From assembly GCF_014302995.1 (NCBI RefSeq), contig NZ_CP060295.1, positions 2,843,501 through 2,907,500 of the forward strand: DNA of 64,000 nt, written 5' to 3'. Under the pieces are notes generated by a model that worked only from the letters and a program-made list of their open reading frames with translations, was not told the DNA's origin and searched no databases. This DNA comes from Variovorax sp. PAMC26660. GTDB taxonomy: Bacteria > Pseudomonadota > Gammaproteobacteria > Burkholderiales > Burkholderiaceae_C. Positions 1,899 through 47,653 of this stretch are shown here, piece by piece. The position numbers and the translations under genes are program-made. How positions within the stretch are numbered: position 1 is the first letter of the stretch; each line of letters opens with the position of its first letter.

Positions 1899-2148
1899 GT
1901 TCAGGGCGACGCTCACGCCGACACGGTGCTCTTTTTCGCGAATGTCCCCCGCTTCGCTCCTCCTTTATTTCGCGAAAAAGAGCCCCGTATCGGCGTGAGC
2001 GCTCAGAGCACTTTTTGATCGGCTGCACACCAGCAGCGTGCCCCTGTGCGAATGACGCCAGGTGCTCCCCGCAGCGAAATAAAGGAGGAGCGAAGCGGGG
2101 GACATTCGCGGAGGGGAGCACCTGGTGTCATTCGCACTCGCCCTGAAC
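1899..2148 (+). repeat. dispersed 250-bp double-hairpin element, copy 1
   Basis: The element is bounded by 10-bp terminal inverted repeats, GTTCAGGGCG at 1899 and CGCCCTGAAC ending at 2148. The left hairpin (about 1909-2001) pairs CTCACGCCGACACGG with its distal complement. The right hairpin (about 2045-2136) pairs GTGCGAATGACGCCAGG with CCTGGTGTCATTCGCAC. The apical parts, 1938-1973 and 2074-2109, are perfect 36-nt reverse complements of each other. It begins 25 bp after the stop of the ThDP gene and separates it from a convergent gene. No protein-coding gene is credible inside it. Confidence 0.9.
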
Positions 2149-2161
2149 ACTCCCGAAGAAG

Positions 2162-2464
2162 TCAACGCAACCCACCCACATAACGAGGCGGCGGCGTAGG
2201 CGGATTCCCATCAGGCTGCCGCGCCGCCAGCCGCGCAGCACGCGCCAACGGCTCCATGGCCTGCTCGAGACGCGTGGCAAGTTGCTCAAGCTCTGCGTCC
2301 TGCGTGTCCGCCGCATGCGCGCGCGTCATGCGCACGATCTCGGCGGCGTACTCGGCATTGGTTGCCATCCACTCGGTGTCGGTCACGCGCCCATGCTTTC
2401 GCCGCAATGCCACATGCAGGCGGGCGGCGAGGGCGATGCGTTCGCTTTCTGACATGGATGGCAT
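2162..2464 (-). CDS. small hypothetical protein
   Basis: This is a 100-residue protein I do not recognise. It is predicted soluble and mostly helical. A basic N-terminal segment (ALRRKHGR) is followed by an alanine-rich amphipathic region and a proline-rich tail (NPPTPPPRYVGG). It has no signal peptide or membrane segment. It starts 18 bp after the ammonium transporter stop on the same strand, so the two are probably co-transcribed. GlnK is the usual partner encoded beside amtB, but this protein shows no PII motifs. Its real status rests on position and length. Confidence 0.6.
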   Translation of the reverse strand: MPSMSESERIALAARLHVALRRKHGRVTDTEWMATNAEYAAEIVRMTRAHAADTQDAELEQLATRLEQAMEPLARAARLAARQPDGNPPTPPPRYVGGLR

Positions 2465-2482
2465 GGTTCCTCCGTCGGTGGA

Positions 2483-3718
2483 TCAGCTCCCCAGGTGTTC
2501 ACGATGCTGTGCAAGATCGAGGCCCAGTTGCTCGCTTTCCGGATCGACGCGCAATCCGACCAGGATGTGCACGAGGAACAGCACCACCGCCGTGCCCGTG
2601 GCGCTGTAGATCGCCACGCTGCCGACGGCGATGGCCTGCGTCAGTACGTTGCCGGTTGCGCCCGAGATGCGCGCATCGGCGAACACCCCCGTGAGCAGCG
2701 CGCCCACGACCCCGCCGATGCCGTGCACACCGAACACGTCGAGCGAATCGTCCGCGCCCAGCAGATGCTTCAGCCCGGTCGCGCCCCAGTAGCAGGCCAG
2801 TCCCGCGATGCCGCCGATGGCCAGCGCGGCCAACGGCGTCACGAAACCAGCCGCCGGCGTGATCGCGACCAGCCCCGCCACCAGCCCCGAGCACAGTCCC
2901 AGCAGCGACGGACTGCGCCGCACGGTCCACTCGCCAATCATCCAGGTCATCGCCCCGGCTGCCGCCGCGATGTGCGTGACCAGCATCGCCAGGCCCGCGC
3001 GCCCGTCGGCCGCCACCGCCGAACCCGCATTGAAGCCGAACCAGCCCACCCACAACAGACCGGCCCCCACCATCGTGAACGCCAGGCTGTAGGGCTCGAA
3101 GGCCTCGCGCCCGTAGCCCTTGCGCGGCCCGAGCGCATAGGCGCAGACCAGCCCCGCGATGCCCGCATTGACGTGCACCACCGAGCCGCCCGCGAAGTCG
3201 AGCGCGCCCATCTGCGCGAGCCAGCCACCCGGCTCCCAGACCCAGTGCGCGATCGGCGCATAGACCAGCACGCTCCACAGCAGCGCGAACCACAGTACCG
3301 CCGAAAAACGCATGCGCTCGACGAAGGCACCCAGCACCAGCGCAGTGGTGATGATCGCGAAGGTCAACTGGAACATCGCGTAGACCGATTCGGGCACGTT
3401 GGGCGCGACATGGCTCACCGCCACCTGGCCCGCCTCCTTCAGGTACTCGAAGCCCGAGAACCAGAAACGACCGGTGCCGCCCAGCCAGGGCCAGCCTTCG
3501 GTGAACGCCAGCGAATAGCCCAGCGCGAACCAGGTCAGCGAGACCGCCGCAGAAATCGCCACGACGCTCGCCATGGTGGCCAGCACGTTCTTGCGGCGCA
3601 CCATGCCCGCATAGAACAGCGCGATGCCGGGCAGCGTCATCAGCAGCACCAGCGCGGTCGAGGTCATCATCCAGGCGGTGTCGGCCGCGTTGATGGAGGC
3701 TTGCGGGACCAAGGCCAT
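2483..3718 (-). CDS. amtB: ammonium transporter AmtB
   Basis: This 411-residue Amt/Mep/Rh-family ammonium channel of the inner membrane has about eleven hydrophobic spans. The pore twin histidines are visible as His182 (GGSVVHVNAG) and His332 (DVFGVHGIGG), and the N-terminal ADTAWMMTSTALVLLM and GIALFYAGMVRRKN motifs are typical. The N-terminus is short, without the cleaved leader of the E. coli protein. A sigma-54 promoter ends about 40 bp before the ATG, with an NtrC-type box about 75 bp further upstream, so transcription under nitrogen limitation is expected. No glnK lies next to it, which is unusual for the family. Confidence 0.96.
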   Translation of the reverse strand: MALVPQASINAADTAWMMTSTALVLLMTLPGIALFYAGMVRRKNVLATMASVVAISAAVSLTWFALGYSLAFTEGWPWLGGTGRFWFSGFEYLKEAGQVAVSHVAPNVPESVYAMFQLTFAIITTALVLGAFVERMRFSAVLWFALLWSVLVYAPIAHWVWEPGGWLAQMGALDFAGGSVVHVNAGIAGLVCAYALGPRKGYGREAFEPYSLAFTMVGAGLLWVGWFGFNAGSAVAADGRAGLAMLVTHIAAAAGAMTWMIGEWTVRRSPSLLGLCSGLVAGLVAITPAAGFVTPLAALAIGGIAGLACYWGATGLKHLLGADDSLDVFGVHGIGGVVGALLTGVFADARISGATGNVLTQAIAVGSVAIYSATGTAVVLFLVHILVGLRVDPESEQLGLDLAQHREHLGS

Positions 3719-3757
3719 GGCAGTGCTCTTCTTCGAGTTGTGGACTGTGGCTTTACG

Positions 3758-3773
3758 TGCACAAGTCGTGCCA
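3758..3773 (-). promoter_or_regulatory. sigma-54 (-24/-12) promoter of amtB
   Basis: On the minus strand this reads TGGCACGACTTGTGCA, one mismatch from the consensus TGGCACGNNNNTTGCA, with the invariant GG and GC separated by ten bases. The predicted start of transcription lies about 28 nt before the amtB ATG at 3718. Confidence 0.85.
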
Positions 3774-3846
3774 CATCGTTAACTAGCAGAAACACTTTGG
3801 TTTGCGAACAGGTCTTCCGAGGTAAGGCAAAGCGGGTAATTCCCAA

Positions 3847-3863
3847 TGCACTGGCGCGGTGCA
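3847..3863. promoter_or_regulatory. NtrC enhancer box upstream of amtB
   Basis: TGCACTGGCGCGGTGCA matches the NtrC palindrome TGCAC-N7-GTGCA exactly. It lies about 75 bp upstream of the -24 element, a normal distance for an enhancer-bound activator of sigma-54 polymerase. A single box is visible; NtrC commonly uses two. Confidence 0.75.
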
Positions 3864-3988
3864 CCCCCTAAAGTCTGCCCACTCGCGAACGGGCCCTGCT
3901 CGTGCTGCCGAGGGTCCGAGGAGACAATCCCCCGAACAAGAAAAATGCTTTCCAAGGCTCCATACGAGATGCCATGTCTGAACTTGAA

Positions 3989-4017
3989 AAGGCGCCGCTG
4001 GTCGGCGCCTTTTTTTA
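3989..4017 (+). terminator. rho-independent terminator
   Basis: A perfect 9-bp stem, AAGGCGCCG and CGGCGCCTT with a 5-nt loop, is followed by a run of seven T. No annotated gene on the plus strand ends before it. Either a short untranslated RNA (about 3865-4017) ends here or it is left from a lost gene. Confidence 0.8.
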
Positions 4018-4135
4018 TGTCCGTCCGAATGTCGCGGGGCGCACTTTTCCTTTAGACCAAACAGCCCCGGTTCGCACGCAGTACATGCGTATGCCGCTAT
4101 CGTTTCGGTAGCAACCCCGGTGAGACAATCCCGCC

Positions 4136-4894: not shown

Positions 4895-4942
4895 AACCCT
4901 GGTCTTGGGTTTGACGCGGTGTGCTTGTGGGGCGCTGCTGCT

Positions 4943-5191
4943 GTTCAGGGCGTCGCCCACGCCGACACGGTGCTCTTTTTCGCGAATGTCCCCCGCTTCG
5001 CTCCTCCTTTATTTAGCTAAAAAGAGCCCCGTATCGACGTGAGCGTTCGGAGTAGTCGTTGATCACAGGATCAATAGCAGCGTGCCCTGTGCGAATGACG
5101 CCAGGTGCTCCCCGCAGCGAAATAAAGGAGGAGCGAAGCGGGGGACATTCGCGGAGGGGAGCACCTGGTGTCATTCGCACGCACCCCGGAC
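4943..5191 (+). repeat. dispersed 250-bp double-hairpin element, copy 2
   Basis: It starts with GTTCAGGGCG 48 bp after the TSUP gene stop and ends with the diverged repeat CACCCCGGAC. The right hairpin is intact. The left hairpin is degraded: the distal arm reads TTTAGCTAAAAAGAG where other copies have TTTCGCGAAAAAGAG. The central linker forms a small hairpin, TTGATCACAGGATCAA. It separates convergent genes (TSUP gene and tctA). Confidence 0.9.
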
Positions 5192-5221
5192 AGCGGCGCC
5201 CAGAAACAAGAGCCGCAAATG

Positions 5222-5243: not shown

Positions 5244-5264
5244 GTTGATGGAGGCCGAAGCCGA

Positions 5265-6776
5265 TCACTCCTCGACGAAGGCTTCCTCGCGCTTGGCCTT
5301 GATGGCCGGCAACAGCACGATGCCCAACAGCATCGCTGCAGCCACCAGCAACCCTGCCGACAGCGGCCGCGTGACGAACACGCTCCACGCCCCACGCGAC
5401 AGCAGCAGCGCGCGCCGCAGGTTCTCTTCCATCATCGGCCCCAGGATGAAGCCCAGCAGCAGCGGCGCAGGCTCCGTCCGCAGCTTGATGAACAGATAGC
5501 CGATGAAGCCGAAGGCCGCCACCATCCACACGTCGAAGGTGTTGTTGTTGGTCGAGTACACGCCGATCGCACAGAACAGCACGATCGCCGGGAACAGGAA
5601 CTTGTAAGGCACCGTCAGCAGCTTGATCCACATGCCGATCAGCGGCAGGTTCAGGATGATCAGCATCGCGTTGCCGATCCACATCGAGGCGATCAGGCCC
5701 CAGAACAGCTCAGGGTTGCTGGTCATCACCTGCGGGCCGGGCTGGATGTTGTGGATCGTCATGGCACCCACCATCAACGCCATCACCGCGTTGGGCGGAA
5801 TGCCCAGCGTCAGCAGCGGAATGAAGGAGGTCTGCGCACCGGCGTTGTTGGCCGATTCGGGCGACGCCACGCCGCGGATGTTGCCCTTGCCGAAGGGCAC
5901 TTCGCCCGGCTTCATGCGGATCTTCTTTTCGAGCGCATAAGACGCGAACGAAGCCAGCAGTGCGCCGCCGCCCGGCAGGATGCCCAGGGCCGAGCCCAGC
6001 GCCGTGCCGCGCAGCACGGCGGGCATCATGCGTTTGAAGTCGTCCTTGGTGGGCCACAGGCCCTTGACCTTGTGCGTGAACACTTCGCGCTCATCGTCGG
6101 GCTGCGAGAGGTTGCCGATGATTTCGCCATAGCCGAACACGCCCATCGCGATCACCACGAAGCCGATGCCGTCGGTGAGTTCGGGAATGTCGAAGCTGTA
6201 GCGCGCCACACCCGAGTTGACGTCGGTGCCCACGATGCCGAGCAAGAGGCCCAGCACGATCATCGCCACCGCCTTCAGCAGCGAGCCCGAAGCCAGCACC
6301 ACCGCGCCGATCAGGCCCAGCGTCATCAGCGAGAAGTACTCGGCCGGGCCGAACTTGAAGGCCAGCTCGGTCAGCGGCGGCGCGAAGGCCGCCAGGATCA
6401 GCGTGCCCACGCAACCCGCGAAGAACGAGCCCAGGCCCGCCGCCGCCAGCGCGGGACCCGCGCGGCCCTGCCTTGCCATCTGGTAGCCGTCGATGCAGGT
6501 GACCACCGAGGACGACTCCCCGGGCAGGTTCACCAGGATGGCCGTGGTCGAGCCGCCGTACTGCGCGCCGTAGTAGATGCCGGCCAGCATGATCAGCGCC
6601 GACACGGGCGGCAGCGCGTAGGTGGCGGGCAGCAGCATCGCGATGGTCGCGACCGGGCCGATGCCCGGCAGCACGCCGATCAGCGTGCCCAGGATGCAGC
6701 CCAGCAGGCAATACAGCAGGTTGGTGAAGGTGAAGGCAACGCCGAAACCGATGGAAAGGTTGTGGATCAGGTCCAT
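5265..6776 (-). CDS. tctA: tripartite tricarboxylate transporter large permease TctA
   Basis: This 503-residue large membrane subunit of a TTT-family carrier has about twelve hydrophobic segments. Family signatures include IGVLPGIGPVATIAMLLP near the N-terminus, YGGSTTAILVNLPGE and, further on, GILPGGGALLASFASY. It works with TctB and a periplasmic TctC protein to import a carboxylate. It is encoded 12 bp after tctB. There is no tctC in this locus, so the binding protein must come from elsewhere; two orphan tctC genes are in this window at 53.3 and 54.4 kb. Confidence 0.95.
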   Translation of the reverse strand: MDLIHNLSIGFGVAFTFTNLLYCLLGCILGTLIGVLPGIGPVATIAMLLPATYALPPVSALIMLAGIYYGAQYGGSTTAILVNLPGESSSVVTCIDGYQMARQGRAGPALAAAGLGSFFAGCVGTLILAAFAPPLTELAFKFGPAEYFSLMTLGLIGAVVLASGSLLKAVAMIVLGLLLGIVGTDVNSGVARYSFDIPELTDGIGFVVIAMGVFGYGEIIGNLSQPDDEREVFTHKVKGLWPTKDDFKRMMPAVLRGTALGSALGILPGGGALLASFASYALEKKIRMKPGEVPFGKGNIRGVASPESANNAGAQTSFIPLLTLGIPPNAVMALMVGAMTIHNIQPGPQVMTSNPELFWGLIASMWIGNAMLIILNLPLIGMWIKLLTVPYKFLFPAIVLFCAIGVYSTNNNTFDVWMVAAFGFIGYLFIKLRTEPAPLLLGFILGPMMEENLRRALLLSRGAWSVFVTRPLSAGLLVAAAMLLGIVLLPAIKAKREEAFVEE

Positions 6777-8747: not shown

Positions 8748-10025
8748 ATGCCATTCGACTCACTGGGCCTGGCCCCCGCGCTCGTGCAGGCTGCCGCCGA
8801 AAGCGGCTATGCCGCGCCGACCGCCATCCAGGCTGCGGCCATCCCCGCGATTTTGCAAGGTCGCGACGTGCGGGGCTCGGCGCAGACCGGCTCCGGCAAG
8901 ACCGCCGCATTTTCCCTGCCGCTGCTGCAGCGCCTGGTCGCCGAAGCCTCGCAGTCGCCCCGCCGCGTGCGCGCGCTGGTGCTCGTGCCCACGCGCGAAC
9001 TCGCAGCCCAGGTCGGCGAGACCATGCGCAGCCTGGCGCAGCACCTGCCCGAACGCCTGAAGATCGCGATTGCCTTCGGCGGCGTGTCGATCAACCCGCA
9101 GATGATGGGCCTGCGCGGCGGTGCCGACATCGTGATCGCCACGCCCGGCCGGCTGCTCGACCTGGTGGACCACAACGCGCTCAAGCTCAACACCGTGTCG
9201 ACGCTCGTGCTCGACGAGGCCGACCGCCTGTTCGACCTGGGCTTTGCCGAAGAACTCAACCGCATCCTCGCGATGCTGCCCGCGCAGCGCCAGAACCTGC
9301 TGTTCTCCGCCACCTTCCCGCCCGCCATCCAGGCGCTGGCCGACGGCATGCTGCGCGACCCCGCCGTCATCGACGTGCAGGGCGAGCCTGGCACCGAGCC
9401 GAACATCGTGCAGCGCGTGATCGAGGTCGACCCCGACCGTCGCACGCAACTGCTGCGCCATCTGCTGAAAGAGAACGAGTGGGAGCGTGTGCTGGTCTTC
9501 GTCGCCACGCAGCATTCGGCGCAGATCGTGGCCGAGAAGCTCTACAAGAACGGCGTGTATGCCGTGCCCTTCCACGGCGACATCGCGCAGGGCACGCGCA
9601 CCGACATCCTTGCGCAGTTCAAGCAGAGCCGCTGGGATGTGGTGATTGCCACCGACCTTGCGGCCCGCGGCATCGACATCGCGCAACTGCCCGTGGTCAT
9701 CAACTACGACCTGCCGCGCTCGCCGACCGACTACATCCACCGCATCGGCCGCACCGGTCGCGCGGGTGAAAGCGGCCTGGCCATCAGTTTCGTGAGCGCA
9801 TCCACCGAAGCGCATTTCCGCGTGATCGAGAAACGTCAGGGCCTGAGCCTGCCGCGCGAGCGCATCGAAGGCTTCGAGCCGACGGAAGTCGCGGCGCCGG
9901 TGGTCGATGCGTCGGGCACCGGTGGCATCAAGGGCAAGCGGCCGAGCAAGAAGGACAAGCTGCGCGCGGCGGCTGCACTTGCCGCGGCAACGCAGCAGCA
10001 AGGCGACGCTGAAAGGAACGACTGA
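8748..10025 (+). CDS. rhlE: DEAD-box ATP-dependent RNA helicase, RhlE type
   Basis: This 425-residue helicase carries the full motif set: Q-motif region (PTAIQAAAIP), Walker A AQTGSGKT at 45-52, PTRELA, TPGRLLD, DEAD at 156-159, SAT at 187-189 and the C-terminal HRIGRTGR. A basic tail (KGKRPSKKDKLRAAA) probably aids RNA binding. RhlE proteins remodel structured RNA in ribosome maturation and degradation, often in the cold. The ATG at 8748 matches the usual MPFDSLGL start; earlier in-frame starts lie over the divergent SUI1 gene. No clear Shine-Dalgarno is visible. It sits beside other RNA-related genes (SUI1, RRM protein). Confidence 0.95.
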   Translation: MPFDSLGLAPALVQAAAESGYAAPTAIQAAAIPAILQGRDVRGSAQTGSGKTAAFSLPLLQRLVAEASQSPRRVRALVLVPTRELAAQVGETMRSLAQHLPERLKIAIAFGGVSINPQMMGLRGGADIVIATPGRLLDLVDHNALKLNTVSTLVLDEADRLFDLGFAEELNRILAMLPAQRQNLLFSATFPPAIQALADGMLRDPAVIDVQGEPGTEPNIVQRVIEVDPDRRTQLLRHLLKENEWERVLVFVATQHSAQIVAEKLYKNGVYAVPFHGDIAQGTRTDILAQFKQSRWDVVIATDLAARGIDIAQLPVVINYDLPRSPTDYIHRIGRTGRAGESGLAISFVSASTEAHFRVIEKRQGLSLPRERIEGFEPTEVAAPVVDASGTGGIKGKRPSKKDKLRAAAALAAATQQQGDAERND

Positions 10026-10039
10026 ACGGCGGCTGCCGT

Positions 10040-10342
10040 TCAGCCCGCCGCGTAGTCCACCTGGTGTCGCGCGACGCGCAGGTCACCCAGCTCCTCGCGA
10101 ACCCGCAGGTGCGCCGGGTGCGTGGCGTAGCCGTCGAGCGAGGCCTGGCTGTCGAACTCGCTGTACAGCACCACGTCGCAGGCATAGGCCACGCGGCTCG
10201 AATCCACGCCCACCTCGATGTGAAGCAGGCCCGGAACCTGGCCGCGCAGCAATTCAAACTTGTGCTTGAGCAGTTGCGCGGCCTGCGCTTTTTCTTCCTG
10301 CGACTCGCCGCGCAGGTCCCACATCACGATGTGCTTGAACAT
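10040..10342 (-). CDS. Dabb (stress-responsive alpha/beta-barrel) domain protein
   Basis: This 100-residue protein begins MFKHIVMWDL, the characteristic Dabb start, and has the conserved VGVDSSRVAYACDVVLYSEF and LDGYATHPAH segments. Dabb proteins are small dimeric ferredoxin-like barrels; some are enzymes of polyketide cyclisation, while most bacterial ones are uncharacterised. The start at 10342 is fixed by that N-terminal motif. It ends 14 bp from the convergent rhlE stop. Confidence 0.9.
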   Translation of the reverse strand: MFKHIVMWDLRGESQEEKAQAAQLLKHKFELLRGQVPGLLHIEVGVDSSRVAYACDVVLYSEFDSQASLDGYATHPAHLRVREELGDLRVARHQVDYAAG

Positions 10343-28958: not shown

Positions 28959-30049
28959 TCGGCATCGCCGAAGCCTTCTCGCCGCGCTACGCGCAGGCGC
29001 GCCAGAAATTCCTTCAAGGCTGCGTGAGTGCCGGCCTCACGGTCGAGCCGCATGCGCACCCGCTCAAGGGCCGCGACGGTGAAGACCTGTCGATGGACGT
29101 GGCGCTCGACGGCGATGCCAATGCCGAGCATCTGCTGATCGTCACCAGCGCCTGCCACGGCGTCGAAGGCCATTGCGGCAGCGGCGTGCAGGTGTTCGCG
29201 CTGCACGACGCCGAATGGCGAGAGAAGGCCAGGGCGCAGGGTGTGGCGGTGCTGTATGTGCACGCGCTGAACCCGCACGGTTTTTCTTATGGCCGACGTG
29301 TCACGCAAGAGAACGTCGACTTGAACCGCAACTTCATCGACTTCTCCAAGCCGGTGCCGGTGAACGAGCCCTACGCCAAGCTGCATGCGCTGTTGTTGCC
29401 CGACACCTGGCCGCCCACGCCAGACAACCAGGCCGCGATTGCGAAGTGGATCGACAAGCACGGCGCCACCGCCTACCAGGCGGCCGTCACCAGCGGCCAG
29501 TACCAGTTCGACGACGGCCTGTTCTTCGGCGGCAAGGCGCCGACCTGGAGCAACAAGACCATTCGCGAAGTGCTGCGCCGCCATGCGGGCCGCGCGCGCC
29601 GCGTGGCCTGGATCGACCTGCACACGGGGCTCGGGCCGAACGGTCTGGGCGAGCGCATCTTTGCCTGCAAGGACGACAAGGTCGCCTATGCGCGCGCCAA
29701 TGCCTGGTGGGGCACGCCTGCGGAGCCGGTCACGTCGATCTACGATGGCTCGTCGACCTCGGCGCTGTTGCGTGGGTTGATGTGGGACGCCATGTATGAG
29801 GAGTGCCCGCAGGCCGAGTACACCGGCATCGCGCTCGAATACGGCACGTTGCCGATGATCGAAGTGACCGGTGCGCTGCGTGCCGACCACTGGCTGCACA
29901 AGCACCCGGAAGCACCGTCCGATCTGGCCGATGGCATTCGCGCGCGGATGGTCGAGGCCTTTTATACGGACACCGATGCGTGGCGTGGGCAGATCGTCAG
30001 CCAGGCTCGGCAGGCGATGTTTCAGGCTGTGGATGGGCTTGCTGGCTGA
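28955..30049 (+). CDS. M14-like (DUF2817) metallopeptidase
   Basis: This 364-residue protein of the DUF2817 branch of zinc carboxypeptidases has the conserved TSACHGVEGHCGSGVQ (metal ligands within HGVEGH), HALNPHGFSYGRRVTQENVDLNRNF and WIDLHTGLG. The ATG at 28955 is within the TGA of the M20 gene (ATGA). The strict coupling suggests the two hydrolases attack the same peptide or N-acyl substrate in succession. No signal peptide is seen, so it is probably cytoplasmic. Confidence 0.9.
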   Translation: MIGIAEAFSPRYAQARQKFLQGCVSAGLTVEPHAHPLKGRDGEDLSMDVALDGDANAEHLLIVTSACHGVEGHCGSGVQVFALHDAEWREKARAQGVAVLYVHALNPHGFSYGRRVTQENVDLNRNFIDFSKPVPVNEPYAKLHALLLPDTWPPTPDNQAAIAKWIDKHGATAYQAAVTSGQYQFDDGLFFGGKAPTWSNKTIREVLRRHAGRARRVAWIDLHTGLGPNGLGERIFACKDDKVAYARANAWWGTPAEPVTSIYDGSSTSALLRGLMWDAMYEECPQAEYTGIALEYGTLPMIEVTGALRADHWLHKHPEAPSDLADGIRARMVEAFYTDTDAWRGQIVSQARQAMFQAVDGLAG

Positions 30050-30086
30050 GCCTTTTTGATTTGATGCGTTGAATTGGGGTGCTGCC

Positions 30087-30336
30087 GTTCAGGGCGTCGC
30101 TCCCGCCGACACGGTGCTCTTTTTCGCGAATGTCCCCCGCTTCGCTCCTCCTTTATTTCGCGAAAAAGAGCCCCGTATCGACGTGAGCGCTCAGAGCGGT
30201 CGTTGATCGCAGGATCAATAGCAGCGTGCCTCTGTGCGAATGACACCGGGTGCTCCCCGCAGCGAAATAAAGGAGGAGCGAAGCGGGGGACATTCGCGGA
30301 GGGGAGCACCCGGTGTCATTCGCACCCGCCCTGAAC
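30087..30336 (+). repeat. dispersed 250-bp double-hairpin element, copy 3
   Basis: Termini are GTTCAGGGCG and CGCCCTGAAC. It lies 37 bp after the M14 gene stop and 84 bp before the oxidoreductase gene, on the same strand as both. In the right hairpin both arms differ from copy 1 in matching fashion (GACACCGGG pairs CCCGGTGTC; copy 1 has GACGCCAGG with CCTGGTGTC). The centre has TGATCGCAGGATCA. Confidence 0.92.
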
Positions 30337-30420
30337 AAGCGGCGCCACGAATGCCCCAACGGCCGTCATCGTGAAAACCTCCCTCTGTGCTTTGGTTTGC
30401 GCACAAATTAGACTCGCCCG

Positions 30421-32481
30421 ATGGCCCACGCACCGGATACCTTGCTCGAAGAAGCACCCCAGACCGCAACGTCCACCGTGCTGGGGGCCTGCCCCCACGA
30501 CTGCCCGGACACCTGCGCGCTCGTCACCACCGTCAAGGACGGTGTCGCCGTGAAGTTGCAGGGCAATGCCGCCCACTCGCACACCGGTGGCGTGCTGTGC
30601 ACCAAGGTGTCGCGCTACATCGAGCGCAACGACCATGCCGAACGGCTGGTGCAGCCCCTCAAACGCGTCGGCCCCAAGGGCAGCGGCCAGTTCGAGCCGG
30701 TGTCGTGGGATGCCGCGCTGGACGACATCGCCGCGCAACTTCGGTCATTGCAGGGCAATTCTGAAGAAATTCTTCCCTACAGCTACGCGGGCACCATGGG
30801 GCTGGTGCAAGGCGAATCGATGGACCGGCGCTTCTTCCACAAGCTGGGCGCCACGCTGCTGGACCGTACGATCTGCTCGATGGCTGGCGGCGAGGCCATG
30901 GTCTACACGCTGGGCGCCAAGGTCGGCATGCGGATCGAGTTCTTCGCCGAAGCCAAGCTGATCCTCATCTGGGGCAGCAACTCCATCGCCAGCAACCTGC
31001 ATTTCTGGCGCCATGCGCAGGCCGCCAAGCGCGCCGGTGCACGGCTGGTGTGCATCGACCCGCGCAAGACCGAAACCGCCGACAAGTGCGACGAACACAT
31101 CGCGCTGCTGCCCGGCACCGACGCCGCGCTGGCGCTGGCACTGATGCACGAGCTGATCGTGCATGACTGGCTCGACCACGACTACATCGCTCAACACACG
31201 CTGGGCTGGGAACAGTTGCGCGAGCGTGCGCTGCAGTGGCCGCCTTCGCGTGCGGCGCAAGTCTGCGGCGTGCCCGAAGAACAGATCGTGGCGCTGGCCC
31301 AGGCCTACGGCACCACCAAGCCAGCCGCGATCCGCTTGAACTACGGCATGCAGCGCGTGCGCGGCGGCGGCAACGCGGCCCGCGCCATCGCCTGCCTGCC
31401 CGCGCTGGTGGGTGCGTGGCGCGACCGCGCGGGTGGCCTGCTGCTGAGCAGCTCGGGCCACTACCCGGTCGACCGCGCCGCGTTGCAGCGGCCCGACCTG
31501 CTGGCCGGCCGCCGGCCGCGCACCGTCAACATGAGCACCATTGGCGACGCGCTGCTCGACACCGCCAAGCCGGTAAAGGCCATCGTGGTCTACAACAGCA
31601 ACCCCGTTGCCGTGGCGCCCGAGTCGGCCAAGGTGGTGGCGGGCTTCGCGCGCGAAGACCTGTTCACCGTGGTGCTGGAGCAGTTCCGCACCGACACCGC
31701 CGATTACGCCGACTACCTGCTGCCCGCCACCACGCAACTGGAGCACTGGGACATCCACTGCAGCTACGGCCACACCGACGTGCTGCTCAACCGCCCGGCC
31801 GTGGCGCCGCGCGGTGAGGCCCGCAGCAACGCCTGGGTGTTTCGCGAACTCGCGCGCCGCATGGGCTTCGACGAGCCCTGCTTCTCGGAGAGCGACGAAT
31901 CGCTGTGCCGCACCGCCTTTGCCGAAGACACCATTGACTTCGCGCAGTTGCTTGCGCAGGGCTTCACCACGGTGAAGCTGCCCGATGCGCCCTTTGCCGA
32001 AGGCAAGTTCCCAACGCCCTCGGGCCGCTGCGAATTCTTCAGTGGGCGCCTGCAGGCCATGGGCATGGACGGCCTGCCCGACCACGTGCCCAACTGGGAG
32101 CCCGCCGGCAGCTCGACCGAGTTCCCGCTCGCGATGATCTCGCCGCCCGCGCGCAACTTTCTCAACTCGACCTTCGTCAATGTGACGAGCTTGCGCGCCA
32201 TCGAAGTCGAGCCGCTGCTCGAAATCCACGAGGCCGATGCCGCCGCGCGCGGCATCGAGGACGGCGCCACCGTGCGCGTGTTCAACAAGCGCGGCGAGCA
32301 CCGCTGCCGCGCCGAGGTCTCGCGCCGTGCGCGCCAGGGCGTGGTGCACGGCATGGGCATCTGGTGGCGCAAGCTCGGCATGGACGGCACCAACGTCAAC
32401 GAACTCACCAGCCAGCGCCTGACCGACATCGGCCGCGGACCCACTTTCTACGACTGTCTGGTGCAAGTCGAAAAAGCATGA
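30421..32481 (+). CDS. molybdopterin oxidoreductase (DMSO reductase superfamily)
   Basis: This 686-residue molybdenum enzyme has an N-terminal [4Fe-4S] site with spaced cysteines CPHDCPDTC and a fourth in GVLC. Molybdopterin-binding domains follow (YAGTMGLVQGESMDRRF, IWGSNSIASNLHFW, CIDPRKTETADKCDEHI) and a C-terminal MGD-binding barrel (ASLRAIEVEPLLEIHEADA region). No Tat leader is seen, so it is probably cytoplasmic. The natural substrate is unknown; no small electron-transfer subunit is adjacent. Its stop overlaps the next gene by 4 bp. Confidence 0.92.
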   Translation: MAHAPDTLLEEAPQTATSTVLGACPHDCPDTCALVTTVKDGVAVKLQGNAAHSHTGGVLCTKVSRYIERNDHAERLVQPLKRVGPKGSGQFEPVSWDAALDDIAAQLRSLQGNSEEILPYSYAGTMGLVQGESMDRRFFHKLGATLLDRTICSMAGGEAMVYTLGAKVGMRIEFFAEAKLILIWGSNSIASNLHFWRHAQAAKRAGARLVCIDPRKTETADKCDEHIALLPGTDAALALALMHELIVHDWLDHDYIAQHTLGWEQLRERALQWPPSRAAQVCGVPEEQIVALAQAYGTTKPAAIRLNYGMQRVRGGGNAARAIACLPALVGAWRDRAGGLLLSSSGHYPVDRAALQRPDLLAGRRPRTVNMSTIGDALLDTAKPVKAIVVYNSNPVAVAPESAKVVAGFAREDLFTVVLEQFRTDTADYADYLLPATTQLEHWDIHCSYGHTDVLLNRPAVAPRGEARSNAWVFRELARRMGFDEPCFSESDESLCRTAFAEDTIDFAQLLAQGFTTVKLPDAPFAEGKFPTPSGRCEFFSGRLQAMGMDGLPDHVPNWEPAGSSTEFPLAMISPPARNFLNSTFVNVTSLRAIEVEPLLEIHEADAAARGIEDGATVRVFNKRGEHRCRAEVSRRARQGVVHGMGIWWRKLGMDGTNVNELTSQRLTDIGRGPTFYDCLVQVEKA

Positions 32482-34671: not shown

Positions 34672-34695
34672 GTCAGTGGGTCTATTTGATGTTGT

Positions 34696-34945
34696 GTTCA
34701 GGGCGGGTGCGAATGACACCAGGAGCTCCCCTCCGCGAATGTCCCCCGCTTCGCTCCTCCTTTATTTCGCTGCGGGGAGCACCCGGTGTCATTCGCACCT
34801 AGGCACGCTGCTGGTGTGCAGCCGATCAACGACCGCTCTGACCGCTCACGCCGATACGGGGCTCTTTTTCGCGAAATAAAGGAGGAGCGAAGCGGGGGAC
34901 ATTCGCGAAAAAGAGCACCGTGTCGGCGTGAGTGCCGCCCCGAAC
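34696..34945 (-). repeat. dispersed 250-bp double-hairpin element, copy 4
   Basis: It is inverted with respect to copies 1-3. On the minus strand its leading end is 29 bp after the FGGY kinase stop. The other end lies 24 bp before the SDR start, so it fills the kinase-SDR gap. Termini are GTTCAGGGCG at 34696 and GCCGCCCCGAAC ending 34945. Both long hairpins are intact. Confidence 0.92.
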
Positions 34946-34974
34946 AGCGGCGCCTCAAATCGAAAGAAAAGAGT

Positions 34975-36501
34975 TCACCCCAGCCGATGCATCGCATCCC
35001 GCAACGCCGGGTAAAGCGATTTGTAGATCTCGAAGCGCTCGCGATACACCGCTTGCGCCGCAGGCTCCGGCCGCGCCCGTTCAACCAGCGTGACCCAGCC
35101 GCTCTCTGCGACAGTTGCGTCGACCAGCCCAGCACCGAGCGCAGCAAGCATCGCCGCACCAAGCGCCGCCTCGACCTCTTCCTCGATGGTGAACACCCGG
35201 TAGCCCGTGATGTCCGCCACGATCTGCATCCACAGGTCTGAATGCGCTGCGCCGCCGACCACGATGAGCCGGTCGTCCAGCGGCTGCCCGCTCTGCCGGC
35301 CGGCCTCGATGTTGTGTTGCAGCGCAAAGCTCACGCCTTCGAGCACTGCGCGGTACAGATGCGCGCGGCTGTGGGCGAGCGAAAGGCCGATGAATGCGCC
35401 CTTGGCCTGTGCGTCCCAGATCGGGCTGCGCTCGCCCATCAGGTAGGGCAGGAAGACCAGCCCCTGCGCACCGGGCGGAACGTCGACAGCCTTGCGCTCG
35501 ATCAGCGCGTGCGCGTCCTCGCCGGTGCGCGCGGCCTCGGCAATTTCGGCCTGGCAGAAGGTGTCCTTGAACCATGTGATGGCCGCCCCCGCCGTGATCG
35601 CGCCGCCGAACACATAGCTGCGGTCCGCGCCCCGGTACACGTGCGGCATGGTGATGAGCTTGTGCCGCGCATCGACCGTCGGGCTCACGAAGCCCCAGCA
35701 CATGCTGGTGCCGATCATCGCCACATGGTCGCCGCTGCCGGTGACGCCCGCGCAGAAAGTCGCCACGGCCGCATCGACGCCACCCGCCATCAGCGGCATG
35801 CCTTCGGCAAGGCCCAGCTTCGCAGCCCATTCCGCGCTCAGGCCACCCACCACATCGCTCGACTCGACAAGGCGCGGCGGCATCATGCGCGCCGGAATGC
35901 CGAGCATGTCGAGTGCTTCGCTCGACCAGCGGCGCCGCGCCGCGTCGTACACGCCGCCGATGTTGCCGGCCGAACTGTGATCGACCGCAAGCTCGCCCGT
36001 CAGCCGCCAGTTGATGTAACTGTTGGGCGGCAGGAAGTACGCGGTCTTTGCCCACACCTCGGGCAACTGCTCGCGAACCCACAGGATCTTCGTGAAGCCG
36101 TAATAACTGTCGACGCCGTTGCCGGTGATGGCTTCGAGACGCGGCACATCGACATTCGTGTTCACCCACGCGACTTCGGCGGTGGCACGCCGGTCCATCC
36201 AGATCAGGCAGGGGTGCAGCGGTTGCATGGCGTCATCGACCGGGATGCCCGCGCCGCCGTAGAGGCTGCTCACGCACATCGCGGCGATGTCCGTGGGCGC
36301 GATGCCGCTCTGCGCGACGCAGGTGCGGACGCTCTCGCACACCGCGTCGAACCACACCGTGCAGTCCTGTTGCGCCCACAGCGGCTGCGGCGTTTCGGGC
36401 TGGTAGGCCACGCTGTGTTGCGAATGCACCTTGCCGTCGATGCCGACCAGCAGGCACTTGGTGCTCTGCGTGCCGATGTCGACGCCGATCACGTATTTCA
36501 T
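34975..36501 (-). CDS. FGGY-family carbohydrate kinase
   Basis: This 508-residue sugar kinase of the xylulokinase/glycerol kinase fold starts with the ATP-binding loop KYVIGVDIGTQSTKCLL. The C-terminal FGGY signature region includes GVSFALQHNIEAGR and GGAAHSDLWMQIVADITG. It phosphorylates the ketose or polyol produced by the operon's dehydrogenases. The start at 36501 is fixed by the N-terminal motif. It starts 11 bp after the zinc dehydrogenase stop. Confidence 0.93.
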   Translation of the reverse strand: MKYVIGVDIGTQSTKCLLVGIDGKVHSQHSVAYQPETPQPLWAQQDCTVWFDAVCESVRTCVAQSGIAPTDIAAMCVSSLYGGAGIPVDDAMQPLHPCLIWMDRRATAEVAWVNTNVDVPRLEAITGNGVDSYYGFTKILWVREQLPEVWAKTAYFLPPNSYINWRLTGELAVDHSSAGNIGGVYDAARRRWSSEALDMLGIPARMMPPRLVESSDVVGGLSAEWAAKLGLAEGMPLMAGGVDAAVATFCAGVTGSGDHVAMIGTSMCWGFVSPTVDARHKLITMPHVYRGADRSYVFGGAITAGAAITWFKDTFCQAEIAEAARTGEDAHALIERKAVDVPPGAQGLVFLPYLMGERSPIWDAQAKGAFIGLSLAHSRAHLYRAVLEGVSFALQHNIEAGRQSGQPLDDRLIVVGGAAHSDLWMQIVADITGYRVFTIEEEVEAALGAAMLAALGAGLVDATVAESGWVTLVERARPEPAAQAVYRERFEIYKSLYPALRDAMHRLG

Positions 36502-37817: not shown

Positions 37818-38798
37818 TCAGCGTTTCGCCTCGCGGCTGATGAAGATGGCGAGCAGAACGATCCCGCCCTTGATGATCAATTGCAGGTACGGCGACACGC
37901 CGATCATGTTGAGACCGTTGTTCAGCACGCCGAGCAACAGCGCGCCGACCAGCGTGCCCACGATGGCACCGCGTCCACCGGCAATGGACGTACCGCCCAT
38001 CACCACCGCCGCGATGGCGTCCAGTTCGAAGCCCACGCCCACGCCGGGCTGTCCACTGGTCACGCGTGCGGCTTGCACGATGCCGGCAATCGCTGCGGTG
38101 AATCCGCTCAGCCCATACACAAGCAGCTTGTAGCGCGATACACGCACGCCAGACAGCCGCGTGGCTTCCTCATTGCCTCCGATGGCATACACATAGCGGC
38201 CGAACGGTGCCATGTTCAGCAGCACGTAGGCCACGAGGTAAGTCGCCAGCATGATGAGGATCGGCACCTTGATGCCCGCCAGCACACCGCCGCCAAGGAA
38301 GGCGAACGAGTCCGGCAAGCCATCGATCGGATAGCCGCCCGTGTAGATCAATGCAACGCCGCGTGCGATGCCCATGGTGGCCAGCGTCACGATGATCGGC
38401 GGCATGCGCAGATAGGCCACGCAGTAGCCGTTGAAGAGGCCGATCACCACGCCGACGGCCAGCCCCAGCGGCACGGCAAGCATCGGAGGAAGTCCGAACT
38501 GCACCATCATCCCCGAGGCCAGCGTGCCCGACAGCGCGACCACCGCACCCACCGAAAGATCGATGCCGCCGGTAAGGATCGCGGCCGTCATGCCTACCGC
38601 GATGATCGCGTTGATGGACGACTGCAGCGCGATGTTCTGCAGATTGCCCCATGAGAGGAAGTTGTCGGTCGCGACGATCATGAAGATCGAGATGGCGATG
38701 AGTCCTACCAGTGGGAGGAATGCTGTGGAGCGGCGCAACTGGGTGAAGAAGCTGCCTGCAGGCGCCGGCGGTGTGGGGTGGGTGGTGGTGGCGTTCAT
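37818..38798 (-). CDS. sugar ABC transporter permease (RbsC type)
   Basis: This 326-residue inner-membrane permease of the carbohydrate CUT2 family has eight to ten hydrophobic segments and the typical LTGGIDLSVGAVVALSG, AYLRMPPIIVTLATMGIARG, and AVVMGGTSIAGGRGAIVGTLVGALLLGVLNNG. It forms the channel for the RbsA-like ATPase and RbsB-like binding protein encoded upstream. The start at 38798 (MNATTTHP) is chosen over an upstream extension that reads from the dispersed repeat. A 363-bp gap with repeat copy 5 separates it from the ATPase gene. Confidence 0.93.
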   Translation of the reverse strand: MNATTTHPTPPAPAGSFFTQLRRSTAFLPLVGLIAISIFMIVATDNFLSWGNLQNIALQSSINAIIAVGMTAAILTGGIDLSVGAVVALSGTLASGMMVQFGLPPMLAVPLGLAVGVVIGLFNGYCVAYLRMPPIIVTLATMGIARGVALIYTGGYPIDGLPDSFAFLGGGVLAGIKVPILIMLATYLVAYVLLNMAPFGRYVYAIGGNEEATRLSGVRVSRYKLLVYGLSGFTAAIAGIVQAARVTSGQPGVGVGFELDAIAAVVMGGTSIAGGRGAIVGTLVGALLLGVLNNGLNMIGVSPYLQLIIKGGIVLLAIFISREAKR

Positions 38799-38846
38799 TT
38801 CAGGTGCTCCACTGGGCATTGCTGGTTTGTGAAGACGAGGGCTTTT

Positions 38847-39098
38847 GTTCGGGGTGCGTGCGAATGACACCGGGAGCTCCCCTGTGCGAATGTCCCCCGC
38901 TTCGCTCCTCCTTTATTTCGCTGCGGGGAGCACCCGGTGTCATTCGCACATGGGCGGGCTGCTGGTGATCGGCGATCAACAACCGCTCTGTCCAACGCTC
39001 ACGCCGATACGGTGCTCTTTTTCGCGAAATAAAGGAGGAGCGAAGCGGGGGACATTCGCGAAAAAGAGCACCGTGTCGGCGTGAGCGACGCCCTGAAC
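38847..39098 (-). repeat. dispersed 250-bp double-hairpin element, copy 5 (inside ABC operon)
   Basis: It is inverted; on the minus strand it begins with GTTCAGGGCG 63 bp after the ATPase stop and ends 48 bp before the permease start. The terminal repeat at 38847 is diverged (GTTCGGGGTG). The right hairpin arms carry GACACCGGG with CCCGGTGTC. The linker has TGATCGCCGATCA. It interrupts what is otherwise a compact transporter operon. Confidence 0.92.
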
Positions 39099-39161
39099 AG
39101 CAGCGCCCAGAACAACGAACGCCAAACGCAGCGCATCGAATCAAAAGACCCGCAGTGGCAG

Positions 39162-40679
39162 TCATTGAAGGCTCCCCGATGAAGTGGCGCAACGCATGAT
39201 GTCGCCCGAGTTGATGGCATCGCCTTCGAGCGTCGCCACGATGGCCCCGCCAGAGAACACAGCGACGCGATCGCACATGCCGACGATCTCGGGCAGCTCG
39301 CTCGAAATCATCACGATCGATTTGCCCTGCCGCGTGAGTTCGCGCATCAGGCTGTAGATCTCCGCCTTGGCGCCCACGTCGATGCCGCGCGTCGGCTCGT
39401 CGAAGATCAGCACCTCGCAGTCGTGACCGAGCCAGCGCGCAATCACCACCTTCTGCTGGTTGCCACCCGAGAGCGTCGCCACCCGCGTCTCGATGTCGGG
39501 CGCCTTCACGCCCACACGCTTCGAGAGTTCGCTGGCCGACTGCTTCTCCGACTTCTGGCTCACCAGCCCCGCATGGCGGTGCTTGCCCAGGTTGTTCATC
39601 GAGATGTTGAAGCGGATCGTGAAGTCGGTGATCAGCCCCTCGACCTTGCGACTCTCCGGCAACAGGCCGATGCCGTTTTCCAGCGCCTGCGTCGGGTCGT
39701 TCAAGCGCACGGACTTGCCGTTGCGCAGAACAGTCTTGCGATGCACGCGGTCGGCACCCATCATTCCCAACGCAAGTTCGGTGCGGCCCGAACCCACCAG
39801 CCCCGCAAAGCCAAGGATCTCGCCTTCGTACAGATCGAAGGCGTTGACGGGACCGCCTTTCGCGAGCTGGATCTCCGTCACTTCGAGCACCTTGCGCTCG
39901 CGCGGTGCAGGCTGCGGCTTCGGCGGAAAGTTGTGCTCGATCCGGCGGCCCACCATCATCTCGACCAGCGCATCCACATCGGTCGCGCCGACGTCTGCGT
40001 GCCCCGCATTGGCCCCATCGCGCAGCACGCTGATGCGGTCGCACACCTCGAAAATTTCGTCCAGGTGGTGCGAGATGAAGATCATCGCCACGCCCCTGCC
40101 GCGCAGCTCGCGCATGATCCTGAACAGATGCCCCGCCTCGTTCGGCGTGAGCGTGGCGGTCGGCTCGTCGAGCACCAGCAGCCGCGCCTTCAGCGACAGC
40201 GCCTTGCCGATCTCGACGAACTGCTGCTGCGCCACCGAGAGCCGGCAGATCGGCACGCCCAGATCGATCTGCACACCCAGTTCATCGAACAGTGCCTGCG
40301 CCGAACGCCTCATTGCCGCCTTGTCCATCAGCCCGAAGCGGTTCTTCAGATATCGGCCGAGAAAAATGTTCTCCACCGCGTTCAGGTACGGCACCAGGCT
40401 GAACTCCTGGAAGATGATGCCGATGCCCGCCGCAATCGCGTCGTTGTAGCCCGCGAACTTGCGCTCGCTGCCTTCGATGAAGATGCGGCCCTCGTCGGCC
40501 TGGTAGATGCCGCCGAGGATCTTCATCAGCGTCGACTTGCCCGCGCCGTTCTCGCCGAGCAGCGCATGCACCTCGCCCTTGCGGATCGAGAGGTCGATGC
40601 CCGCGAGCGCCTTCACGCCGGGGAAGCTCTTCGAGACGCCTTCGAGCCGCAGCATCTCGGCGTTGTCGTTCGTGGTCAC
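39162..40679 (-). CDS. sugar ABC transporter ATP-binding protein (RbsA type)
   Basis: This 505-residue protein has two ATPase halves. The N-terminal half has Walker [10 protein letters not shown] and signature [15 protein letters not shown]; the C-terminal half has a degenerate loop [15 protein letters not shown] and [15 protein letters not shown], the normal CUT2 pattern. Start is GTG at 40679 with only a weak ribosome-binding site (AGGCGGA). It energises the adjacent permease for sugar or polyol import. Confidence 0.95.
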
Positions 40680-44198: not shown

Positions 44199-44211
44199 CG
44201 GGCGAGGGCTG

Positions 44212-44469: not shown

Positions 44470-44533
44470 GGCGGTCAAATTGATAAGCAGAAAACGCGCA
44501 TCTTAAATGCCGTGGTACCTGCCTGTACCAGGC

Positions 44534-45370: not shown

Positions 45371-45373
45371 GGT

Positions 45374-46081: not shown

Positions 46082-46132
46082 GTCGGTGCCCCCGTGTGTC
46101 TCGTGGTCTCTTGGGGACACTCTAGCGTATGT

Positions 46133-46153
46133 GCACCGCACCATGAACGGTGC
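46133..46153. promoter_or_regulatory. candidate TetR operator palindrome
   Basis: GCACCG-N9-CGGTGC lies 51 bp upstream of the TetR gene start in the gap after the phasin gene. The half-site spacing suits a TetR dimer. It is short and could be coincidental in GC-rich DNA. Confidence 0.35.
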
Positions 46154-46206
46154 GGGACATGTTTTGCGGCGCTGATTTTTTGTGCAGTGCCGCAATACCG
46201 GCAGGG

Positions 46207-46722
46207 TCAGCCGGCGTTGCCGCTGTTGTGGCGGCGCACGGTTTTCTTCGCGGGAGCAGTGGGTGCCTTGCGTGCCGCGGTCTTGCGGGCGGCGCGCGCT
46301 GTCTTGGCGGGCGTGGCGGTTTCGCTGGCGCCGGCGCGGTGCTTCAGTTGCGCTTCGAGGGTGTCGATGCGGGCCTGCAGTGCGGCCATGTCGGCGGCCG
46401 AGGGCACGCCGAGTTTTTCGAGCGCGCGGGCCACGCGTTCTTCGAAGATGTTCTCCAGCTTGCCCCACTGGCCGGCGGCCTTGGTGCCGAACTCGCTGGC
46501 AAAGCCGGCCATGCGGGTCTGGGCTTGCGCCAGGGTTTCTTCGGCGGCTTGCTGGGTCTTCTTCTGCATGCCGGCGCCGTCCTTGACCAGCGCCTCGAAG
46601 GCCTTGCTGCCTTCCTGCTGCATCTTGGCGAAGGCGCCGAGGCCGGCCAGCCAGATCTGCTGGGCGGAATCCTTGATGCGGTCGGAGGCTTTGTTGTTGC
46701 TGTCGTCGTCGGCGGTGGCCAT
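46207..46722 (-). CDS. phasin / PHA granule-associated protein (PhaF/PhaI type)
   Basis: This 171-residue protein has a phasin N-terminal domain (QQIWLAGLGAFAKMQQEGSKAFEALVKDG), a leucine/alanine coiled coil (DMAALQARIDTLEAQLK), then a basic, alanine-rich tail (ARAARKTAARKAPTAPAKKTVRR) of histone H1 type. Such PhaF-like proteins coat polyhydroxyalkanoate granules and tether them to DNA. It precedes the TetR gene in the same orientation. Confidence 0.93.
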   Translation of the reverse strand: MATADDDSNNKASDRIKDSAQQIWLAGLGAFAKMQQEGSKAFEALVKDGAGMQKKTQQAAEETLAQAQTRMAGFASEFGTKAAGQWGKLENIFEERVARALEKLGVPSAADMAALQARIDTLEAQLKHRAGASETATPAKTARAARKTAARKAPTAPAKKTVRRHNSGNAG

Positions 46723-46812
46723 GCGGAGGTTCCTTGAAAGGGGGCGTCGAATCGCAAGACTCTAGCCGCCCACGGCCTCTGCCGTTAGAGCTTTCCGCCT
46801 AGTTGTGCAGGG

Positions 46813-47262
46813 TCAGGGTGTGGCGCCGGCCGCGCGACTGGCGTCGAGGTGCGTCTTGGCACGCTCGGCCAGGGCCATTTCGCCGGGCGTGCCGGGCACG
46901 AAGCTCTGCACCGGCAGCGGGCGGCCATGCGAGTCGACCGAGACGAACACGATCAGGCATTCGGTGGTTTTCTCCATCACGCCGCCCTTCATGTCGCCGC
47001 TGCGCACCTCGACCGAGATGTTCATGCTGGTGGTGCCGGTGTAGGCCAGGCGGGCTTCGACCTCGACGAGGTCGCCGATCATGATCGGCCGGTGAAAGCG
47101 GATGCTGCCGATGAAGGCGGTGACGCAGTAGCGCTTGGCCCAGCTGGTCGCGCAGGCGTAGCCGGCCTCGTCGATCCATTTCATGACCGTGCCGCCGTGG
47201 ACCTTACCGCCGAAGTTGACGGTGCTGGGCTCGGCGAGAAAGCGCAGGGTGATGGAAGACAT
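46813..47262 (-). CDS. hotdog-fold acyl-CoA thioesterase (YciA/BACH type)
   Basis: This 149-residue thioesterase has NFGGKVHGGTVMKWIDEAGYACA with the catalytic Asp in WIDEAG and the helix typical of this family, and IRFHRPIMIGDLVEVEA. It hydrolyses acyl-CoA in the cytoplasm. It is 90 bp before the phasin gene on the same strand. Confidence 0.92.
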   Translation of the reverse strand: MSSITLRFLAEPSTVNFGGKVHGGTVMKWIDEAGYACATSWAKRYCVTAFIGSIRFHRPIMIGDLVEVEARLAYTGTTSMNISVEVRSGDMKGGVMEKTTECLIVFVSVDSHGRPLPVQSFVPGTPGEMALAERAKTHLDASRAAGATP

Positions 47263-47400
47263 GGGCGCCTTTTTTGTGGGGGCTGTGGGTGGGGAGCCGC
47301 GATTATGCGAGCGGCCTGTGGTTTGCTCTCGCGCCGGCTGTCTCCCGTGAATGCTCGTCTGTCTGCAAGGCTTGTGCCAGTGAGCGTTCTTGGCGTTGCT

Positions 47401-47653
47401 GTTCGGGGTAGGTGCGAATGACGCCAGGAGCTCCCCTCCGCGAATGTCCCCCGCTTCGCTCCTCCTTTATTTCGCTGCGGGGAGCACCTGGCGTCATTCG
47501 CACTGGGCACGCTGCTGGTGATCGCCGATCAACAACCGCTCTGTCCAACGCTCACGCCGATACGGTGCTCTTTTTTCGCGAAATAAAGGAGGAGCGAAGC
47601 GGGGGACATTCGCGAAAAAAGAGCACCGTGTCGGCGTGAGCGACGCCCTGAAC
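47401..47653 (-). repeat. dispersed 250-bp double-hairpin element, copy 6
   Basis: It is inverted; on the minus strand it begins with GTTCAGGGCG 17 bp after the LysR stop. The distal terminal repeat is GTTCGGGGTA at 47401. Right arms carry GACGCCAGG with CCTGGCGTC, fully paired, unlike copy 1 which keeps one G-U. The T-run of the left stem is one base longer (TTTTTT). The thioesterase gene starts 139 bp further on. Confidence 0.92.

What the first reader, a model, noticed from the sequence alone, without database searches (positions are those of the whole stretch)
1899..47653. Family of six 250-bp double-hairpin elements with terminal inverted repeats
Copies at 1899-2148, 4943-5191, 30087-30336, 34696-34945, 38847-39098 and 47401-47653 share GTTCAGGGCG-type termini, two long hairpins and near-identical interiors. 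They contain no gene and no transposase is in the window. Six copies in 64 kb suggests many hundreds genome-wide if the density holds. It looks like a non-autonomous mobile or REP-like family specific to this lineage; I know of no name for it.
Basis: seen in the sequence. Interest (0 to 1): 0.85.

Follow-up and report, generated by a model that had tools for sequence, protein, structure and literature searches.

The report
Paired-hairpin repeat family of Variovorax
The soil bacterium carries about 170 near-identical copies of a 250-base non-coding element made of two mirrored hairpins, mostly just behind genes, and its relatives carry a wider family in which hairpin shape and a short core are kept while the rest changes, probably a long-lived mobile repeat whose moving enzyme is still unknown.

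Summary
In detail: six copies at the stated places, three in each orientation. The host is a Variovorax (7.39 Mb) with about 168 copies. Each copy is two arms of about 90-100 nt in inverted order; each arm is a hairpin with a covarying outer stem, an asymmetric internal loop (TGTCCCCC / TCCTCCTTKA) and a variable apical hairpin. It is not lineage-specific: a covariance model matches 31 of 37 Variovorax genomes and 66 of 141 genera of the GTDB family (E-values rough; core present in 30 of 30 weaker matches inspected). It is probably the repeat named BRE (Hot et al. 2011), whose sequence I could not compare. New here: strong covariation; wobble pairs kept on the purine-rich strand (123:17, and 71:7 in 30 further genomes); position just behind genes with biased orientation (46:13); copies at shared sites resemble their own genome's family rather than each other. 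The only Y1/RAYT gene is unlinked. Best reading: a REPIN-like non-autonomous element, recognised strand-specifically as a folded hairpin by an unknown factor and homogenised within genomes. Mobility is inferred; no insertion with clean ends or target duplication was seen.

The parts
1899..2148 (+). element copy 1 (arm 1 left)
1902..2010 (+). arm 1 of copy 1; C-rich core on + strand
   Evidence: covariance model R1, 93.2 bits
2037..2145 (-). arm 2 of copy 1, C-rich strand on -, purine-rich strand on +
   Evidence: R1, 98.5 bits
4943..5191 (+). element copy 2
   Evidence: arms 4946-5054 +, 5080-5188 -
30087..30336 (+). element copy 3 (site A)
   Evidence: no core at the site in the 8 relatives placed there
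34696..34945 (-). element copy 4 (site B), inverted
   Evidence: diverged copy at the same site in G011, G004 and EL159, one arm in G014, a deleted form in G018, an end remnant in G017; absent in G016, G010, G009
38847..39098 (-). element copy 5 (site C), inverted
   Evidence: same site occupied in G011 and G018, empty in G016, G010, G004, G014 and EL159
47401..47653 (-). element copy 6 (site D), inverted
   Evidence: no core in the 7 relatives placed there; remnant with both arms gone in EL159
34677..34980 (.). stretch missing in G009 and G010 at site B: element plus outer ends
   Evidence: alignment gap (query 5678-5981)
38805..39151 (.). stretch missing in G016 and G010 at site C
   Evidence: alignment gap (query 9806-10152)

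Best explanation
The element is a REPIN-like, non-autonomous repeat built from two inverted copies of one structured arm (probably BRE). Shown here: each arm is kept as a hairpin by covariation, around a conserved asymmetric internal loop; the purine-rich strand of each arm is the one whose fold is protected; the arms stand C-arm then G-arm in all genomes looked at but one; copies sit mostly just behind genes; arms and whole copies are lost by deletion; copies within a genome are more alike than copies at the same site in different genomes. Inferred: a factor encoded elsewhere (an enzyme acting on folded single-stranded DNA, less likely RNA) reads the G-strand hairpin, one on each DNA strand, and spreads or overwrites copies, so that the family is homogenised genome-wide; copies are tolerated behind genes, where they may also form the 3' end of transcripts.
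For: Copy number and control. Neighbouring cores in order +-: 94 of 94 in the own genome, 51 of 54 in other Variovorax (3 ++), 10 of 10 in other genera (a few loci were fetched twice, e.g. L295/L314, L127/L287); 14 of 15 arm pairs in 30 further loci. Covariation 0.613 against 0.169 +- 0.013 in shuffles and at most 0.13 slid (29 arms); 0.688 against 0.159 +- 0.011 in 45 arms from 30 genomes not used to build the model (alignment fitted to the structure). Substitutions in 56 own copies: core 0.12-0.24%, left end GTTCAGGGCG 1.4%, stems 3-9%, spacer 12%, beyond the ends 25-32%. Wobble cells on the G-strand against the C-strand: 123:17 in 104 distinct arms, 50:10 in 40 arms outside Variovorax (25 arms to 3, 12 ties), 71:7 in the 45 further arms (36 to 0, 9 ties); also for changes from A-T pairs, and for arm 1 where its G-strand is antisense to the gene read into it (49:7). 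At shared sites 7 of 7 ortholog pairs rank 10th-36th of 59; own paralogs average 0.926 (30 of 59 copies compared). Arms per Variovorax genome from none found to at least 59.
Against: No mobilising gene found. No arm lies beside 30 of 30 fetched Y1 loci; G035, G092 and the 89%-complete G018 carry arms without a detected Y1 gene, while six genomes with no arm found have one. No target-duplication signal in 56 copies. Some 'empty' sites are scars of loss. No full match on phages, viral contigs or plasmids other than large Variovorax replicons. Copies are not independent, so wobble counts overstate events (distinct events 52:15). Arm 2 with antisense G-strand shows little asymmetry (7:5, with 24 other mismatches), and orientation is biased relative to transcription (46:13): both point to a transcript-level effect. 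The arm order is reversed in G220. The shared-site result could also come from repeated insertion at the same places.
Confidence: 0.5

Rival explanations
1. A host RNA element: the second arm read from a gene (G-arm) caps the 3' end of mRNAs as a processing, stabilising or terminating hairpin, and copies are kept for that. If BRE is the same repeat, bprJ RNA of Bordetella is an example: transcribed, and changed in an RNase III mutant.
For: Of 105 own copies 59 lie between codirectional genes, 33 convergent, 8 divergent, 5 unclear; median 36 bp from the upstream stop; arm 1 upstream in 46 of 59 (p about 2e-5) (all intergenic gaps: 598 codirectional, 240 convergent, 256 divergent). Arm 2 has fewer unpaired positions when its G-strand is sense (0.61 versus 2.38 per arm, p 0.011; folding energy p 0.0015). 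bprJ seen by Northern blot and differentially expressed in an RNase III mutant (passages of PMC3110155 and PMC8386462).
Against: Arm 1's G-strand fold is protected as much where it is antisense (49:7) as where it is sense (12:1 and 45:7; p 0.63 for unpaired positions). Close relatives have few or no copies.
Confidence: 0.27
2. A MITE of a classical DDE transposon with GTTCAGGGCG inverted ends.
For: Inverted ends around most own copies.
Against: Ends not seen outside Variovorax while the core is conserved; no target-duplication signal.
Confidence: 0.07
3. A RAYT/REPIN pair proper, moved by the single Y1_Tnp gene (C1:3876126).
For: Inverted pair architecture; one Y1 gene in 32 of 36 genomes, two in G072.
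Against: No arm beside 30 of 30 Y1 loci; no co-occurrence.
Confidence: 0.1
4. An old, no longer mobile repeat maintained only by gene conversion and lost by palindrome deletion.
For: Shared sites with genome-specific sequence; scars, half elements and lost arms.
Against: Large copy-number differences within one genus; own sites without a core in every relative placed (A in 8, D in 7), though D is a scar in EL159.
Confidence: 0.2

Closest known systems
BRE, Beta-proteobacterial repeat element (Hot et al. 2011, PMC3110155)
   Same: ~90-bp G+C-rich repeat, mostly intergenic, sometimes several per site, in Bordetella, Polaromonas, Delftia, Acidovorax, Rhodoferax and other betaproteobacteria; up to 29 copies; possibly mobile (section 14 read, other passages by search). 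Length, composition and kind of host fit our arm.
   Different: What I read of the paper gives no structure, paired architecture or protected strand, and no function; Variovorax is not in its table; the sequence is in a figure and a supplement not held, so identity is untested. ~168 paired copies is far above its maximum.
REPIN / BIME with RAYT (recalled; PMC3116915 seen as search listing and start of abstract, PMC2817692 as listing and two passages)
   Same: Inverted pair of palindromic units, intergenic, high copy, genome-specific families.
   Different: Units several times longer, conserved internal loop, no linked Y1 gene.
ERIC, NEMIS/Correia, BOX (recalled)
   Same: Short intergenic palindromic repeats that can be part of mRNA ends.
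   Different: No sequence relation shown; no Rfam family matches our element.

Membership tests
BRE | sequence of the published repeat | not testable with these tools
BRE | 75-91 bp, G+C 63.7-78.9%, usually intergenic | tested here: met
   arms about 90-100 nt inside model spans of 109-149 nt; G+C 0.58-0.77 for full-length matches, so some lie below the published range; own copies intergenic
BRE | found across betaproteobacterial genera, sometimes several per site | tested here: met
   66 of 141 genera of the family, unnamed; two elements in tandem in L293, first arms diverged
REPIN | two palindromic units in inverted order | tested here: met
   order reversed in G220
REPIN | RAYT (Y1 transposase) gene flanked by the units | tested here: not met
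   0 of 30 Y1 loci have an arm within about 1.5 kb
REPIN | GTAG/CGTC-type tag next to the palindrome | not tested
   no systematic test; none noticed in alignment A2
MITE of a DDE transposon | target-site duplication | tested here: inconclusive
   matched flanks no more alike than mismatched ones, but short duplications cannot be tested with fuzzy ends
MITE of a DDE transposon | parent transposon with the same ends | not tested
   no search made
known Rfam RNA | match to an Rfam 15 model | tested here: not met
   window at gathering scores, 30000-30450 at E up to 10

The most novel reading that the evidence does not exclude
A mobile repeat of a new type: each arm is read as a folded purine-rich strand, one on each DNA strand, by a factor that is not a Y1 transposase, and the element renews itself by overwriting existing copies, so that old sites stay filled while their sequence turns over to each genome's current family.
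Probability: 0.3. Interest if true: 0.82.

Novelty: new variant of a known kind. Interest (0 to 1): 0.62.

Why it matters
As far as I recall, high-copy non-coding repeats in bacteria are best studied in gammaproteobacteria, Neisseria and streptococci. This family matches about half the genera sampled in a very large bacterial family and carries internal evidence of which strand folds and of sequence turnover at fixed sites. That makes testable how a repeat without a detectable transposase spreads and stays uniform, and what it does behind up to some 150 genes in one cell.

Tried and rejected
Lineage-specific family: rejected. Rfam RNA: none. Linked RAYT: rejected. Target duplication: no signal overall; site C alone shows a roughly 20-base resemblance of its two flanks, not exceptional against the control. 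Autonomous copy with a gene: the three unpaired arms in the own blocks look like plain arm deletions, and the predicted neighbours in 14 loci from other genera are ordinary genes, no transposase seen by eye. Phages and viruses: 0 exact-pattern matches in IMG/VR, one short weak hit in phages. Plasmids: full matches only on Variovorax replicons of over 1 Mb; weak partial hits elsewhere, e.g. a Burkholderia plasmid at E 0.04, not followed. Replication-strand bias: none obvious over most of the genome (9 to 2 in the last stretch). Fear that weak model matches are chance hairpins: of 36 genomes re-searched, best loci were given for 30, and 30 of 30 hold the core; the weakest (best E above 1e-10) were not inspected. 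Scar search: the script flagged 2 of 27 site-relative pairs, one of them false by eye; a further remnant (G016 at 2912213) was seen by eye. Literature: searches; only PMC3110155 described something like it. PMC3733652, PMC12306157 and PMC6006769 were only searched for taxon names and, in the last two, one further term, with no hits.
Full report
What is there. The host is Variovorax by its relatives: the 120 listed stretches of GTDB contigs with the exact core are Variovorax records (scan stopped at its limit). The six copies are real, 249-253 bp, three in each orientation. The own genome is one contig of 7,388,698 bp and has 168 forward and 169 reverse matches of the 30-bp core, control 0 and 0. 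In four fetched stretches (1.65 Mb) 56 pairs of this core and five unpaired ones were found; with apical variants 59 pairs, and the covariance model gave 121 arms of at least 75 bits (weaker antisense matches left out of this count).

Anatomy. Each element is two arms in inverted order, 20-29 nt apart between model spans in most loci (about 117 in L309). An arm is an outer stem of some 25 bp, an asymmetric internal loop and an apical mini-hairpin. In Variovorax the loop is closed by GCGAA/TTCGC; in 30 further genomes the common part is TGTCCYCC against TCCYCCTYNA, present in 43 of 45 arms and in 30 of 30 loci, and two of those closing pairs are mostly not formed. The conserved parts of the two arms are complements because the arms are inverted. 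The mini-hairpin changes length and sequence but stays a hairpin in most matched strings, by eye. On 29 arms, 26 of 31 predicted pairs have double changes; the covariation score is 0.613 against 0.169 +- 0.013 (0 of 500 shuffles), at most 0.13 when slid. On 45 arms not used for the model it is 0.688 against 0.159 +- 0.011 (there the measure 'further pair types' was reached by 64 of 500 shuffles). The structure came from the first alignment and the second is fitted to it, which favours both.

Which strand. In 104 distinct arms the outer stem has 123 A-C cells and 17 G-T cells read on the C-rich strand, that is 123 G-T on the purine-rich strand (distinct events 52:15). It holds in first arms (54:10) and second arms (69:7), in 62 Variovorax arms (70:6), in 40 arms outside Variovorax (50:10), in 45 further arms (71:7), for changes from A-T and from G-C pairs, and for new changes within the own genome (arm 1 116:16, arm 2 56:17). 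A mutation bias of the replicated or transcribed strand would not follow the arm's own polarity. I read it as selection on the folded purine-rich strand. Against over-reading: shared ancestry inflates counts; of 21 outside loci with such cells two go the other way (L297, L304) and two tie; arm 2 with antisense G-strand gives 7:5.

Where it sits. With a gene caller of my own, of 105 own copies 59 lie between codirectional genes, 33 convergent, 8 divergent, 5 unclear; all intergenic gaps in the blocks are 598, 240 and 256. Arm 1 is upstream in 46 of 59 codirectional cases. The median distance is 36 bp to the upstream stop and 62 bp to the next start.

Comparison of sites. Twelve of the 25 own elements in the 2.48-2.93 Mb block could be placed in at least one relative (for most relatives only 20 kb or less had been fetched). 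G016 lacks cores at 10 of 10 comparable sites, though one holds a remnant; G011 has an element at 3 of 9. EL159, about 92% identical, has the copy at B, lacks C, and at D keeps only the joined outer ends. G018 and G014 keep partial elements at B. So loss is common. At seven shared sites the copy in the relative is no closer to the own copy at that site than to other own copies (ranks 10, 16, 16, 20, 22, 32, 36 of 59), although flanks are 81-93% identical, while paralogs within a genome average 0.89-0.93. Conversion or overwriting explains this, or repeated insertion at the same sites.

Arm order. C-arm then G-arm in 94 of 94, 51 of 54 (3 ++) and 10 of 10 neighbouring core pairs and 14 of 15 arm pairs in 30 further loci; the exception, G220, shows the reversed order at both of its listed pairs.

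Distribution. Exact-type core: 10 of 61 Variovorax genomes, own included. Degenerate core: 21 of 200 genomes, 15 of 141 genera. Model R1: 31 of 37 Variovorax and 1 of 24 other genomes of the order; 70 of 150 genomes and 66 of 141 genera of the family at E <= 0.001, 53 of the 150 at E <= 1e-10 by my count of the table. Counts per genome are capped by the number of candidates scored.

The mover. One Y1_Tnp gene in the own genome; 33 of 36 genomes have it (two copies in G072), including six with no arm found; G018 (89% complete), G035 and G092 have arms and none detected. No arm lies in 30 of 30 fetched Y1 loci (34 places were found).

Known relatives. BRE (PMC3110155; section 14 read whole, other passages by search) fits in size, composition, hosts and position, but its sequence could not be compared. 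PMC8386462 (one passage) lists bprJ, the RNA in which BRE was found, among sRNAs differentially expressed in an RNase III mutant. I therefore call this a new variant of a known kind.

Judgement. Shown: structure, strand preference, architecture, position, within-genome uniformity, wide distribution. Inferred: mobility, a trans-acting reader of the hairpin, and overwriting. A transcript-end role is the strongest rival and may hold at the same time. The checks made before refiling strengthened distribution and strand preference and weakened 'fixed order' by one genome; I left the odds as they were.

Noticed in passing
L159 (own C1:3876126-3876461): A Y1 transposase-like gene occurs once in 32 of 36 genomes (twice in G072), with or without repeats, which looks like a domesticated gene; no arm beside it.
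   Followed up: partly
L445 (G220) 1341-1626: The two arms stand in reversed order (G-arm first), unlike the pairs of the other genomes looked at; a second listed pair of G220 does the same.
   Followed up: no
L299/L302, L296/L297 and L292/L293: Copies in different genomes, some of different genera, lie beside the same kind of gene (by eye from translations): shared or preferred sites.
   Followed up: no
L009-L128 (KBW07, Root411 records): Many of the listed KBW07 matches lie near contig ends, and Root411 has N runs and shortened copies: the repeats appear to break assemblies, so counts in drafts may be low.
   Followed up: no
right flanks of 6 of 56 own copies, about 98 bases from the core: The word CTGAAATGA is enriched (6 against 0.11 expected), perhaps next to gene starts.
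   Followed up: no
L274, L276, L335-L339 (G011, G018); L446: Some arms have CCTCC...TCCCCC in place of CCCCC...TCCTCC: a paired swap within the internal loop.
   Followed up: no
window 38740-39190: The two flanks of copy C resemble each other over about 20 bases that occur once in relatives without the copy.
   Followed up: partly
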